From Ichthyobacteriaceae bacterium (GTDB lineage: Bacteria; Bacteroidota; Bacteroidia; Flavobacteriales; JADGDT01), in NCBI GenBank assembly GCA_016744755.1, contig JADGDT010000018.1, positions 1-39,762 on the forward strand: a stretch of DNA of 39,762 nucleotides, written 5' to 3'. The first letter of the stretch is position 1; each line of letters starts with the position of its first letter. Below, one piece after another: positions 1,894 to 39,762 of the stretch. The notes under the pieces are model-generated. The model worked only from the letters and a program-made list of their open reading frames with translations, ran no database searches and was not told where the DNA came from. Both the position numbers and the translations under genes were made by a program.

Positions 1894-2979
1894 TTACTGT
1901 AACTTAGATAATAGTATCGATGGCAAATGACCTGGTGGTGCCCTGTTTCGGGGTATTTCTCGTATAATATGCATCCTGCCTTTTTTACATTTCTGGCATA
2001 GACCAATATCAAAACCTGTAAGTCTTTTTATACGCTCTGTGGGAGTTTCCTTTTTTTTGGATTCAATTAATTCATCTATATCAGGTTTATGCTCTGCTTC
2101 AAACTGTAATTCTAAATTACGTTTTGTGGTATGATTGTAAATACCATAACGTCTTATTCGTACAAAACGTTTGGGAAAAACATGAAGACAGAATCGCTTT
2201 AAAAATTTAACTCCTTCTTCGAGTAAATGAGTTGCATAAGTATGTCGTAATGAATGGAGGTTTACTTCTTTTGTAATAGATGTTTTCTTTAAGTTTTCTC
2301 GCATTACCCACGATAGTCCCCTAATACTATATTGACTATCTAACTGTTTACCATTGAATAACCAAATATGTGGATTTTCTGCTTTTAAATACTTTTTCAA
2401 TCCATATGACATGGTTGGTGATAGAGGTAATATTCTATCTTTCTTATACTTGCTTTGGCGAATATGTATTGTCATACGCTCAAAATCAACATCAGATATT
2501 TTAAGATTTATAACTTCTTGTCCTCGTAAACCTGCTGAATATATTAAAGTTAAAACTATACGTTGCTTTAGTAGTGACGGTGCCAAAAACAACTCTCTAA
2601 GTTCTTTACGATTTAGAATAATAGGTAGTTTGGTCTCTCGTTTTAAGCTAGGTAATGCTATTGCATTTTTATTCATACCTAGTAGTCGATAATAATAGCG
2701 GAGACCATAAACCATATGCTTAAAACTACTACGTGAAGGAGATTTTGGATCGCGAGCTAGAGATACCAAATACTCATTAATCTCATCTTCACTTACTTGT
2801 TCTGGTAGCCTTTTAAAATGGAGTACAAACAAAGCTATGCGTCTTCCATAATTACTTAAGGTACTTTCACTTTGTCTTCGTAAAGTAACTTGTTGTGATA
2901 ATTTCACAAGTACTTTTTTGAAACCAGGAACTACAATAATTGCCCGTTCCAAAATGGTTGGAGAGATTCTATTTCTCAT
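1894..2979 (-). pseudogene. Fused tyrosine recombinase / Y2 (IS91) transposase tail
   Basis: This 361-residue frame is a chimera. Residues 1-257 are a tyrosine recombinase: SAM-like core-binding domain about 25-105, catalytic domain from about 115, with Arg I in GLRGQEV (R152), a Lys in the SKYKKDR beta-hairpin and HSLRHTYATHL (H242, R245). After EEGV at 254-257 the sequence switches without a stop to KFLKRFCLHVFPKRFVRIR, a conserved segment of the IS91 Y2 transposase, and ends with CQKCKKGRM (327-335), that family's zinc-ribbon tail. The second catalytic His/Trp and the Tyr nucleophile of the recombinase are missing, as are the HUH and Tyr motifs of the transposase, so neither enzyme can work. 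An in-frame deletion between two adjacent genes explains it; the junction lies near 2208. Confidence 0.85.
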
Positions 2980-3310
2980 ATCTGTATCTTTTAAAATTAG
3001 TATTACAGATATAGTAGACTATTTTTTTTGAATTCACTACTTTTGAACTAGAGATGAGCTAGCCGCCGTTGGCGGATTTAGTTCAACAATGTATAAAAAC
3101 AATAAGGGTTTTAGTTCTTAACCCAAAGTTCAGTCCATTTTACAAAGTCCGCCAAATTTAAAATTTTGCGGATTGTTTTTTGAAAGAAAAATTGCAAATT
3201 TGGCTAAGTGATAAACTGAATATTAAGCACTTTTTTAATCCCTTACGATTCTTACACCAACCGATACTCGCCATTTTCGGTATAACAAATAAGTTTATGC
3301 CACTGGTTAA
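2980..3310. other. Gene-free stretch between IS91 remnant and repeat copy A
   Basis: No coding frame of note. It holds the right-end palindrome of the IS91-type element (3043-3086) and a hairpin TCCGCCAAATTT / AAATTTTGCGGA at 3148-3172 followed by TTGTTTTTT. That hairpin looks like a terminator for plus-strand transcription and could be the original end of the transcript from 396-1592, now separated from it by the insertion. Confidence 0.4.
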
Positions 3311-3315
3311 TATTA

Positions 3316-3577
3316 TGGTTCTACTGTTATTTTAATGGTTCTATACTCATTTGTATGGATTTTCTAATTTAGAATACCGTCATGTTGAGCGTGGTTGGTG
3401 AGCGTAGTCGAATCATAATTTCCTTTGTGCAACAAAAGGAGATACAGCTCGCCTTGACTGTCTAGGCAGGTCGAAACATCTATAGCTACAGTGATAACAT
3501 GATGTGAACTATTTTGGAATAGACCTTTCGGCTTCGCTCAAGGTGACGATTGTTCCACTAAATTAGTGGTAGAACCA
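3316..3577 (+). repeat. L/R miniature element, copy A
   Basis: The left end has two tandem starts: TGGTTCTACTGTTATTTTAA at 3316 and TGGTTCTATACTCATTTGTA at 3336. The right end, read on the minus strand, is TGGTTCTACCACTAATTTAG. The interior is a diverged homologue of copy B (29111-29477): both share TAATTTAGAATA, CGTCAT-x-TTGAGC, TTTCCTTTGT, CAACAAAAGGA, ATCTATAGC-x-ACAGTGAT, ATAGACCTTTCG and CAAGGTGACGATTGTTCCAC in the same order. No clean target duplication is visible (flanks ATATTA and ATTATA). The GTCAT-TTGAGC / TCGAA units belong to a repeat type common between genes in this phylum. Confidence 0.65.
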
Positions 3578-3647
3578 ATTATATTTACTCTAGATCAATC
3601 AATTAATTTTTGATGTTTTTTTCACTTAAAATAAAAGTTTGAATAAA

Positions 3648-26183: not shown

Positions 26184-26257
26184 GGCGAGGTAGCTCAGCT
26201 GGTTAGAGCGTCGGATTCATAACCCGGAGGTCGCGGGATCGTGCCCCGCTCTCGCTA
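26184..26257 (+). tRNA. tRNA-Met(CAU), copy 1
   Basis: 74 bases. Acceptor GGCGAGG pairs with TCTCGCT (1-72 is G-U), D arm GCTC/GAGC, anticodon loop TTCATAA with anticodon CAU, T stem GCGGG/CCCGC. The G-U at position 1-72, not the C-A mismatch, argues against the initiator. An elongator Met is most likely, but tRNA-Ile2 (lysidine-modified CAU) cannot be ruled out. Odd points: the anticodon stem has an A-C mismatch at 31-39, and the T loop reads ATCGTGC instead of TTCGANN. CCA is not encoded. Confidence 0.92.
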
Positions 26258-26325
26258 CGATTACGTTTGAAGTATTTTTTGATGTTAACTTCTAAACGAA
26301 CAACCAGAAACATCAAATACATTTT

Positions 26326-26399
26326 GGCGAGGTAGCTCAGCTGGTTAGAGCGTCGGATTCATAACCCGGAGGTCGCGGGATCGTGCCCCGCTCTCGCTA
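26326..26399 (+). tRNA. tRNA-Met(CAU), copy 2
   Basis: Identical to copy 1 over all 74 bases, including the unusual T loop and the A-C pair at 31-39. The 68-base spacer between the copies is not tRNA-like but contains an inverted pair (ATTTTTTGATGTT / AACATCAAAT) that may help processing. Both copies share one promoter and the terminator at 26405. Confidence 0.92.
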
Positions 26400-26404
26400 C
26401 AAAT

Positions 26405-26439
26405 ATCCTCAAGAACTTTGTTTTTGAGGATTTTTTTTG
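26405..26439 (+). terminator. Terminator after the tRNA pair
   Basis: ATCCTCAA (26405-26412) and TTGAGGAT (26424-26431) form an 8-bp stem followed by eight or nine T. The stem's right arm overlaps the trmD -33 element. Confidence 0.85.
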
Positions 26440-29087: not shown

Positions 29088-29110
29088 TTTAGATGGTACT
29101 ATAACTAATT

Positions 29111-29477
29111 TGGTTCTACCCTTATTTGTGTGGAAGTTGTAATTTAGAATAGTCGTCATCTTGAGCAGAATTTCCTTTGTTGCCTGCCCTGAGCAAAGTC
29201 GAATGGGCAACAAAAGGAAATGTAGTCGAAAGATCTATAGCAACAGTGATTACACAATGTGCTATTTGTGTAATAGACCTTTCGACTTCGCTTTGGCTCC
29301 GCTACCCATGACGACTTTGTAATTATCTCGCAAAGGCGCAGAGTCGCAAAGCTAATTTTCTTAGCGCCTTGGCGACTTTGCGAGACTCAAATCGTCATTA
29401 GCTCATTGGAATTTTTTTTGAGAAAAAAACTTAGGCCTCAAGGTGACGATTGTTCCACAACATTCAGGGTAGAACCA
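29111..29477 (+). repeat. L/R miniature element, copy B
   Basis: Left end TGGTTCTACCCTTATTTGTG (L type), right end on the minus strand TGGTTCTACCCTGAATGTTG (R type). The flanks are identical, CTAATT at 29105-29110 and 29478-29483, a 6-bp target duplication. The interior is homologous to copy A and includes two hairpins: TTTCCTTTGTTGCC (29171-29184) with GGCAACAAAAGGAAA (29206-29220), and ATTACACA (29249-29256) with TGTGTAAT (29267-29274). A second repeat unit of the type CGCAAAGGCGCAGAGTCGCA / TTGGCGACTTTGCGA has been added at about 29330-29390. No coding frame of note. Confidence 0.8.
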
Positions 29478-29497
29478 CTAATTTTACTTTAAAAAAA

Positions 29498-29590: not shown

Positions 29591-29776
29591 TTATACCTTA
29601 AATCCGCAAGTGGTTTCGTTATGAAAAGCTGTAATGTATGTTGTCATTGGTGTAGCACAAGAAAAAGTAACGCAGACGTATCCATAGATACGATGAGTAA
29701 GTTTTTATGAGCATTGCCAATGATAGCGTGCAGTACAGTTTTGTAATAGAAATCCATTTGCGGATTTAAGGTTATA
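29591..29776. repeat. Long imperfect palindromic element (about 185 bp)
   Basis: ACCTTAAATCCGCAA (29595-29609) is matched exactly in reverse by TTGCGGATTTAAGGT (29758-29772), and the arms continue to pair, imperfectly, to the centre GTATC-CATA-GATAC (29678-29691). The inner arms share, for example, TTGTCATTGG with CCAATGATAG, and CGCAGACGTATCC with its counterpart GGATACG-like strand. The whole block can fold into one long hairpin. It sits about 100 bases before the M48 protease start. Confidence 0.6.
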
Positions 29777-35761: not shown

Positions 35762-36534
35762 TCAGGACTTTATTTCAATAAATCCATATGACTCTGAAAG
35801 TTCTTTTAATTTTTGTTGATTTTTGGGAGAAGGCTTTTCAGAAAGCCCATATTTTAAATCACAATTGAGGTATTTATCAGGGTTTTTCTCAGGAGAATAT
35901 TATGGTAAATAAAACAACTCTATTTCAACTTTATTTTCTTCTACCCATTTCTTTACAAGTTTACTGTGGTGTACTCTCAAGTTCTCTAGTATTAGATAAA
36001 CCTTCTTCTTTTTTACTTTTATTAATTGAACCATAAATTCTATAAACCTATCTGAATTCATCGTTCCTGTATATATCATGAACTCTACCTTACCTTGATT
36101 GGTTACTGTGGATATCATATTTACTGAAAAACGTTTTGTCATACTCGTTTTTACAGGTGTTTTTCCTTTTGGAGCATATGAACATACATGCTGACTATTG
36201 TTTCTAACTTCTGTTTCATCTCCCCAATTAATTTCAGCACCCTCATCCTTAGCCTTCTGTTTTATTGAAGGATACTCTTCTTCTAACCACTTCTTTAAAG
36301 CTTTTGAATTTTGCTCATATGCTTTCTTCTTAGGCTTTTGTGATGAATATCCCCATGACCGCAGGTAATCTCCAGTTGTTGTAATTGCAAGTACAATTTT
36401 CAATTCTCTCTCTATTAATTCTTTCACTGCTTTACGAGTCCATAGACCATAAGGTAATTTCAATTGATCAGGCATTGTATCAACAATCATCTTCTTTCTT
36501 GAATTGATAACTTCCTAAAATCTACTTTCTCCAT
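35762..36534 (-). pseudogene. Broken IS630-family transposase
   Basis: The start ATG at 36534 gives MEKVDFRKLSIQERR and then a TGA. In the next frame RKKMIVDTMPDQLKLPYGLWTRKAV... continues, so roughly the N-terminal third (DNA-binding region) has been deleted with a frameshift. The DDE core follows. First Asp in NWGDET is kept. The second reads LILENLRVHH, Glu in place of the usual Asp. The third block is FYLP-TAA-YSPEKNPDKYLN, where a TAA at 35900-35902 interrupts and the catalytic Glu (NPDE) is Lys. The frame then closes at 35762. Several independent lesions: this is an old remnant. Terminal repeats could not be located with certainty. Confidence 0.85.
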
Positions 36535-36607
36535 AAAAGTAATGATACAAAAACATATCTACATAGGACTATATTTTACCGTTAGGTAAATATGTCTAAT
36601 ACTAGAA

Positions 36608-36782
36608 TGGTACTACCACGAATGTTGTGGAAATTTGAATAAATTACATTCTTAATAAAATAAAAGATTAAGGGTTTAAAGGATTATAGGATTACTGTAC
36701 CTATTGTCTTTACTATGTAATCTTATAATCTAATTTTTACTCTAATACTTTTTTGTTTTCCACACAAATAAGGGTAGAACCA
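36608..36782 (-). repeat. L/R miniature element, copy C (inverted, short)
   Basis: The left end is R type (TGGTACTACCACGAATGTTG) and the right end, on the minus strand, is L type (TGGTTCTACCCTTATTTGTG), so it is inverted relative to copies A and B. The flanks CTAGAA at 36602-36607 and 36783-36788 are identical: a 6-bp target duplication. The 175-base interior is unrelated to A and B; it is AT-rich with AAAGGATTATAGGATTAC and a counterpart GTAATCTTATAATCT that can pair. The target duplication contains the TAG stop of the NUDIX-type regulator gene. Confidence 0.8.
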
Positions 36783-37475
36783 CTAGAATAAGAAGTCGTA
36801 ACCTATAGACGACATTTTTGCGTACTTATCTTCGTCGAACTTATAAAGTTTAGATTCTTTCCCGCTACTTGTTTCTATAGATTTTTCTAAATCAATAAGA
36901 AGCTTAGAGTTGAAAATTTTCTTTCTGAAATTTCTCTTATCAAAAGATTTATTCAATGCCTCTTCATACAACGATTGCAATTGGGCAATAGTAAATTCTT
37001 TTGGCAACAGATTAAATCCTACTGGACGACGCTTAACCCTTCTTTTTAAACGCTCCTTAGCGAAGTCTACAATCGTGTTGTGATCAAAAGCTAAATCAGG
37101 TATTTCATCGTAAGCAAACCATTTAAGTCCTTGCTTTTTAAATTTCTCAGTTTCTTTCGGATCAAATCTAACCAAACCGTAGTGTCCAATATTTAAAACT
37201 CTTCCTAAAGGATTTCTAAAAACCTTTCCACTAGCGTTTAGTTGCTCTATGTAAGCATCGTCAGAACCTATAGACGATATAAGTAATTTCTTTACATTTA
37301 AATCTATACTCTGATCTGGCTTAATGTATTTAGAAGGTAATATATAAGCACCCTTAAAAGGTTCTTCTTCATTGAATTTTAACAAGATGTGTAATTTATC
37401 TAAATCAAATCCAAAAATAACCAACGATGTAGCCAATGCCACATTAAAATATTCTTCAATATCTTTTCTCTCCAT
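36783..37475 (-). CDS. NUDIX-type transcriptional regulator (NrtR/AraR-like)
   Basis: 230 residues: an N-terminal NUDIX fold (about 10-140) and a C-terminal winged-helix DNA-binding domain (about 150-225, FTIAQLQSLYEEALNKSFDKRNFRKKIF). This is the NrtR/AraR regulator architecture. The catalytic Nudix box is lost: where G-x5-E-x7-REUxEExGU is expected, the sequence runs LPSKYIKPDQSIDLNVKKLL, followed by ISSIG, with no REUxEE glutamates, so it should sense a ligand rather than hydrolyse one. NrtR relatives control NAD synthesis, and a Bacteroides homologue controls arabinose use; the ligand here is unknown. It is expressed from its own minus-strand promoter. The stop TAG is within the target duplication of copy C. 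Confidence 0.88.
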   Translation of the reverse strand: MERKDIEEYFNVALATSLVIFGFDLDKLHILLKFNEEEPFKGAYILPSKYIKPDQSIDLNVKKLLISSIGSDDAYIEQLNASGKVFRNPLGRVLNIGHYGLVRFDPKETEKFKKQGLKWFAYDEIPDLAFDHNTIVDFAKERLKRRVKRRPVGFNLLPKEFTIAQLQSLYEEALNKSFDKRNFRKKIFNSKLLIDLEKSIETSSGKESKLYKFDEDKYAKMSSIGYDFLF

Positions 37476-39459: not shown

Positions 39460-39664
39460 CTATTATAAAACGGTTGAACCAAATATTGTATGATATTACG
39501 ACAGTAATATACACAACGAGTGTGCAATATAGTATATATAACAGGTATTACCAGACAAACGCATGAGATTCTTTTAAAGACCTAGTACTTTCAATAGAAA
39601 TTAATTATCCAAGCAGCTTTTAGTCGTTTAGCTTTGATGCTTATATTTTTAGTATTTACATTTT

Positions 39665-39762
39665 TGGTTCTACCCTTATTTGTGTGGATAAAGACTCAAG
39701 CCACCATTAAAAAAAAGTATAGCACTTCTAAAATTATTGAAGGTTCTGTAGCCTCTAGCAGT
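39665..39762 (+). repeat. L/R miniature element, copy D (left end only)
   Basis: TGGTTCTACCCTTATTTGTG at 39665-39684 matches the L end of copies B and C exactly over these 20 bases. The window ends before any R end. The interior seen so far (GACTCAAGCCACCATTAAAA...) does not match copies A, B or C. Confidence 0.6.

What the first reader, a model, noticed from the sequence alone, without database searches (positions are those of the whole stretch)
3316..3577. Miniature element family with two distinct ends and exchangeable interiors
Four sites in this window (3316-3577, 29111-29477, 36608-36782, 39665 onward) carry the same paired ends. One end is always L type (TGGTTCTACCCTTATTTGTG, or its worn form in copy A) and the other, where visible, always R type (TGGTTCTACC...TTGTGG). 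Copies B and C have exact 6-bp target duplications (CTAATT; CTAGAA) and lie in opposite orientations, which indicates real transposition of non-autonomous units. Copies A and B share a structured interior, C has an unrelated one and D appears different again. Ends that stay constant while cargo changes suggest a mobilisation system that a distant transposase serves.
Basis: partly seen in the sequence, partly recalled or inferred. Interest (0 to 1): 0.62.

Follow-up and report, generated by a model that had tools for sequence, protein, structure and literature searches.

The report
ISL3-driven miniature transposons in Bacteroidota
The four sites are three non-autonomous miniature transposons and one end of the full-length ISL3-family insertion sequence that most likely moves them; the family has at least 80 paired copies in this genome, which is ordinary biology, although one interior type carries an unusual self-nesting palindromic module.

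Summary
The element ends begin at GGTTCTACC, not TGGTTCTACC. The target duplication is therefore 8 bp, not 6: ACTAATTT for copy B and ACTAGAAT for copy C. Genome-wide I found 80 paired units. Of these, 48 have exact 8-bp duplications (0.25 expected after shuffling flanks) and none is exact at 6 bp only. Copies A and B belong to one interior type (61 units) and C to another (15). Copy A's left end is not worn: it belongs to a subfamily with a doubled left end whose outer copy is the functional one. Copy D is not a miniature element. It is the 3' end of the autonomous insertion sequence, which the assembly could not resolve. Its 98 nt encode an in-frame ISL3-like transposase C-terminus, and its 8-bp flank reappears beside the element's other end on contig C194. 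Degenerate copies with ISL3 transposase domains lie on C166 and C41. ISL3-mobilised MITEs with GGYTCT ends and 8-bp duplications are already known from Microcystis (PMC11448079). New member of a known kind. The unusual part is a 24-nt REP-like module in the type I interior that forms nested L^nR^m arrays: all 60 arrays found have every L before every R.

The parts
3309..3316 (.). left target duplication of copy A, decayed (AATATTAT)
   Evidence: 6 of 8 match the right flank
3317..3576 (+). Copy A: type I MITE, doubled-left-end subfamily (outer end 3317-3336, inner end from 3337), 260 bp
   Evidence: sister copies C57, C96, C149 and others have exact 8-bp duplications at the outer end
3392..3415 (+). 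24-nt REP-like module TGGTTGGTGAGCGTAGTCGAATCA inserted after TTGAGCG within copy A
   Evidence: counterpart without the module at C38:14926
3577..3584 (.). right target duplication of copy A, decayed (AATTATAT)
29104..29111 (.). left 8-bp target duplication of copy B (ACTAATTT)
29112..29476 (+). Copy B: type I MITE, 365 bp, L end left, R end right, long hairpin interior
   Evidence: RNA fold z = -9.4
29180..29207 (+). REP-like hairpin insert (TGAGCAAAGTCGAA core) in the loop of copy B's sub-hairpin; boundaries approximate
   Evidence: absent from C100, present in C29 and others
29304..29435 (+). extra palindromic insert in copy B, absent from most type I copies; boundaries approximate
29477..29484 (.). 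right 8-bp target duplication of copy B (ACTAATTT)
36601..36608 (.). left 8-bp target duplication of copy C (ACTAGAAT)
36609..36781 (-). Copy C: type II MITE, 173 bp, R end left, L end right
   Evidence: RNA fold z = -4.7
36782..36789 (.). right 8-bp target duplication of copy C (ACTAGAAT); overlaps the stop codon of the NrtR-like gene at 36783-37475
39658..39665 (.). 8-bp target duplication (ACATTTTT) left of the autonomous element
   Evidence: same 8 bp beside the R end on contig C194
39666..39762 (-). Copy D: L end and transposase 3' end of the autonomous ISL3-family element; the rest is not in the assembly
   Evidence: in-frame TARGYRTFNNFRSAILFFNGGLSLYPHK*; same 97 nt at three other contig ends

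Best explanation
The sites are copies of one transposon family. The autonomous member is an ISL3-family insertion sequence of about 1.3 kb with two related but distinct ends: L, GGTTCTACCCTTATTTGTGTGGA, and R, GGTTCTACCCTGAATGTTGTGGA. Its DDE transposase, acting in trans, recognises the outer ~23 bp of any unit carrying the two ends and inserts it into AT-rich intergenic DNA with 8-bp staggered cuts. Shown: shared ends, L/R pairing, 8-bp duplications, an empty site, and ISL3 transposase remnants with the same ends in the same genome. Inferred: that this transposase moves the MITEs, that at least one copy is intact, and that the mechanism is DDE cut-and-paste or copy-out. The two interiors are unrelated to the transposase gene. 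Type I is a REP-like hairpin that takes up further palindromic modules; type II is a separate AT-rich hairpin.
For: 48 of 80 pairs have exact 8-bp duplications (shuffled mean 0.25, maximum 3 in 1000); exact matches at 6 bp only: 0. DDE_Tnp_ISL3 hits: C166 204.5 bits, C41 99.7 bits; NCBIfam's ISL3 model is the best hit, though below its full-length cut-off for these fragments; Zn_ribbon_ISL3 26.7 bits, cut-off 25.5. L and R ends flank the C41 remnant and L flanks C166. Four contigs stop at the same ~97 nt inside the L side and two at the same ~96 nt inside the R side, as expected for an unresolved repeat; C98 carries the same R side. C236 and C194 share ACATTTTT. An A-type unit sits inside a type II unit with AATAAAAT on both sides. 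Blastn finds no interior match between the MITEs and the element, only ends.
Against: No intact transposase gene is in the assembly; the two assembled copies carry stop codons and frame breaks. Thirteen of 80 pairs match at 4 or fewer of 8 positions, so some pairs are decayed or mispaired. With about 12 contig-end combinations, the C236/C194 match has a few per cent chance of being accidental. Recognition by the transposase was not tested.
Confidence: 0.94

Rival explanations
1. The units are moved by a different transposase of the genome, and the ISL3 copies merely share the ends.
For: The assembled ISL3 copies are broken, and a second, diverged ISL3-type gene is present on C140.
Against: The shared L and R ends are asymmetric and match over 23 bp; the 8-bp duplication is that of ISL3-type elements in the Microcystis precedent (PMC11448079). 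No L/R-like end was found around the C140 copy.
Confidence: 0.04
2. The ends are not transposon ends but a REP/BIME-like dispersed repeat spread by recombination or a RAYT enzyme.
For: The type I interior is REP-like, and the REP core TGAGCRWAGYCGAA occurs 106 times in the genome, also outside the MITEs.
Against: Exact 8-bp duplications in 48 units across both interior types, and an empty site. Type II lacks the REP core. REP cores occur without the ends, so the interiors and the ends are separable.
Confidence: 0.01
3. A rival for the interior only: the nested modules inside type I arise purely by replication slippage of each arm, not by insertion of the module into its own centre.
For: C84 (LLLRR) and C110 (LLRR) have identical 40-nt flanks on both sides of the array and differ by one 13-nt L arm; C8 and C60 differ by one R arm. 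Unequal arrays exist (8 L, 3 R).
Against: A whole 24-nt LR module separates C100 from C202 exactly; 25 of 57 arrays have a counterpart without the array. L and R numbers correlate (rho 0.86; 0.63 for larger arrays), and all 60 arrays are L+R+.
Confidence: 0.4

Closest known systems
ISL3-associated 187-nt MITE of Microcystis aeruginosa (PMC11448079)
   Same: Ends of GGYTCT type matching an ISL3-family element in the same genome, 8-nt direct repeats, stem-loop interior, tens of copies, mostly intergenic
   Different: Here two unrelated interior types and a doubled-end subfamily share the ends; the host is Bacteroidota-like; end sequence GGTTCTACC rather than GGCTCTTCG
ISL3 family of insertion sequences (DDE_Tnp_ISL3, PF01610)
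   Same: Transposase domain, Zn ribbon, 8-bp duplications, ends starting GG
   Different: No intact copy assembled; the closest transposase loci found in the scanned species genomes are only 26-30% identical
CGTC-tagged REPs (PMC3733652)
   Same: The type I hairpin begins CGTCA and carries palindromic modules; the paper lists CGTC repeats in Bacteroidetes and REP dimers inside longer palindromes
   Different: Here the modules lie inside a transposon with its own ends and form nested L^nR^m arrays; membership in a CGTC family was not tested

Membership tests
ISL3 family (autonomous element) | DDE_Tnp_ISL3 transposase domain | tested here: met
   204.5 bits on C166 (cut-off 23), 99.7 on C41
ISL3 family (autonomous element) | N-terminal ISL3 zinc ribbon | tested here: met
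   26.7 bits, cut-off 25.5, partial model match
ISL3 family (autonomous element) | 8-bp target duplication | tested here: met
   C236/C194 ACATTTTT for the element itself; 48 MITE units
ISL3 family (autonomous element) | terminal inverted repeats starting GG | tested here: met
   GGTTCTACCCT at both ends
ISL3 family (autonomous element) | single intact transposase gene of about 400 codons | tested here: inconclusive
   assembled copies are broken; copy D is open over its last 28 codons only
MITE | short non-coding unit with the same inverted ends as a full element and target duplications | tested here: met
MITE | mobilised in trans by the full element's transposase | not testable with these tools
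   needs an assay
REP repeats (interior module) | encoded or mobilised by an associated RAYT (Y1) transposase | not tested
   no genome search left for a Y1 transposase

The most novel reading that the evidence does not exclude
The 24-nt REP-like module TGGTTGGTGAGCG/KAGYCGAACCA has its own centre (TGAGCG^KAG) as insertion target. Repeated insertion therefore nests copy within copy and yields L^nR^n palindromes that grow from the middle, carried along inside an ISL3 MITE.
Probability: 0.45. Interest if true: 0.6.

Novelty: new member of a known kind. Interest (0 to 1): 0.36.

Why it matters
It gives a clear ISL3/MITE pairing in a Bacteroidota-like genome with 80 paired copies. It explains why the assembly breaks where it does, and it offers natural variants of the ends for mapping what the transposase needs. 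The separable, self-nesting REP-like modules in the interior are a natural record of how palindromic repeats grow, and could be tested directly.

Tried and rejected
A 6-bp duplication: 0 units are exact at 6 bp only. Interiors derived from the transposase gene: no blastn match. Ends in other genera: none in the 57 genomes of other genera in the order; the two congeners have 2 weak L ends each and no transposase hit. Empty site of copy B in congener G002: the orthologous gap carries no MITE, but the coding flanks are only 67-73% identical and I could not place the exact empty site. Linking C236 to C194 by synteny in G002 failed because the contig ends beside glyA. Finding GG ends with 8-bp duplications around the distant ISL3 relatives L222-L224 gave nothing convincing. 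No viral contig encodes a close relative of the transposase. Literature on nested palindromes in Bacteroidota: nothing relevant found in the held library.

Full report
Check of the observation. The L 20-mer is present three times in the window with none expected. Genome-wide there are 110 L and 51 R places and none for the reversed patterns. The window is the whole of contig C236 of a 3.64-Mb, 242-contig genome. I fetched the DNA around almost all listed ends, found 227 end-like sites and built 80 convergent pairs after collapsing doubled ends. Pairs are L with R in 57 cases; most of the others involve the doubled or ambiguous ends of A-type units. The host is called Bacteroidota-like from its gene content and REP type only; no taxon name was available.

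The duplication is 8 bp. If the end is taken to start at GG, 48 of 80 units have exact 8-bp duplications, against a mean of 0.25 in 1000 shuffles of the flanks (maximum 3). Exactly matched runs limited to 6 bp were never seen. The base before GG varies across the genome, as expected for target DNA. Sites are AT-rich with a preference for T at -10 and A at +10.

The units fall into two large interior groups: type I, 61 units, with A and B; and type II, 15 units, with C. Only the ends match the insertion sequence by blastn. Within type I, 13 units carry a doubled left end, GGTTCTACTGTTATTTTAAT followed by GGTTCTATCCTCATTTGTG. Nine of these have 8/8 duplications when the outer end is used, so the outer end is functional and not a worn copy. 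Unit C156 shows an A-type MITE inside a type II MITE with AATAAAAT on both sides; the uninterrupted site is the type II consensus, visible in window copy C.

Copy D. Its 98 nt recur at three other contig ends. The reverse strand reads in frame to a stop inside the L end, TARGYRTFNNFRSAILFFNGGLSLYPHK*. C166 and C41 carry the same ends with broken ISL3 transposase genes. Contigs C194 and C130 stop about 96 nt inside the R side, and C98 carries the same R side. C194 has the flank ACATTTTT that also precedes copy D. The simplest reading is that several near-identical autonomous copies collapsed in assembly and their interior was left out; the smallest contig I saw is 3,000 bp. Insertion of the element into a type II MITE is seen on C130.

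Distribution. Among the relatives searched, the two congeners have two weak L ends each and no transposase hit; the 57 genomes of other genera have neither. The family therefore expanded in this species or was gained recently in its genus. By a crude ORF call, units lie mostly between genes.

Interior modules. Type I interiors differ by discrete inserts. C100 and C202 are identical except for exactly 24 nt, TAGTTCGGCTACGCTCACCAACCA. On the other strand this is TGGTTGGTGAGCG-TAGCCGAACTA. Such modules form arrays in which all L arms precede all R arms (60 of 60), with correlated numbers (rho 0.86; 0.63 for arrays above one LR; related copies are not independent). They follow TGAGCG in 41 of 58 cases, which is the module's own centre. 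Single-arm differences between close copies show that slippage also happens. The core motif is frequent outside MITEs, and the 24-nt module occurs alone in two viral contigs without the MITE ends, so it is an independent REP-like repeat that has entered the MITE.

Comparison with what is known. A Microcystis MITE with GGCTCTTCG ends, 8-nt repeats and a matching ISL3 element is already described (PMC11448079). This is the same kind in a new host, with more interior variety. Features defining ISL3 were tested and met, apart from an intact gene, which the assembly does not show. Trans-mobilisation is inferred.

Noticed in passing
window 29596-29771: A second MITE family, 176 bp, near-palindromic, ends CCTTAAATCCGCAA, with 5-bp duplications (TTATA here; TATTA, AAGTA and TAATA elsewhere). 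At least seven other copies in the genome and one diverged copy in congener G001.
   Followed up: partly
C33, C107, C214, L255 and others; window 3392-3415: Nested arrays L^nR^m of a 24-nt REP-like module, never LRLR, up to about six of each arm.
   Followed up: partly
C29:14-120, C131:17980-18039, C211:2828-3053: The same REP core at regular spacings of 31, 23 and 24 nt; the C29 array was read and is a 31-nt tandem repeat.
   Followed up: no
window 35900-36490: Transposase gene with DDE_3 and HTH_33 domains, 196 aa, probably IS630-type and possibly truncated.
   Followed up: no
window 1894-2979: Tyrosine recombinase whose C-terminal part matches Y2_Tnp; possibly a fused or frameshifted integron-like or transposase gene.
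   Followed up: no
window 26184-26405: Two nearly identical 80-nt tRNA-like repeats with CAT in the anticodon position, 142 nt apart.
   Followed up: no
C194:86-388: DDE_Tnp_1 transposase fragment overlapping the R end of the collapsed element on contig C194.
   Followed up: no
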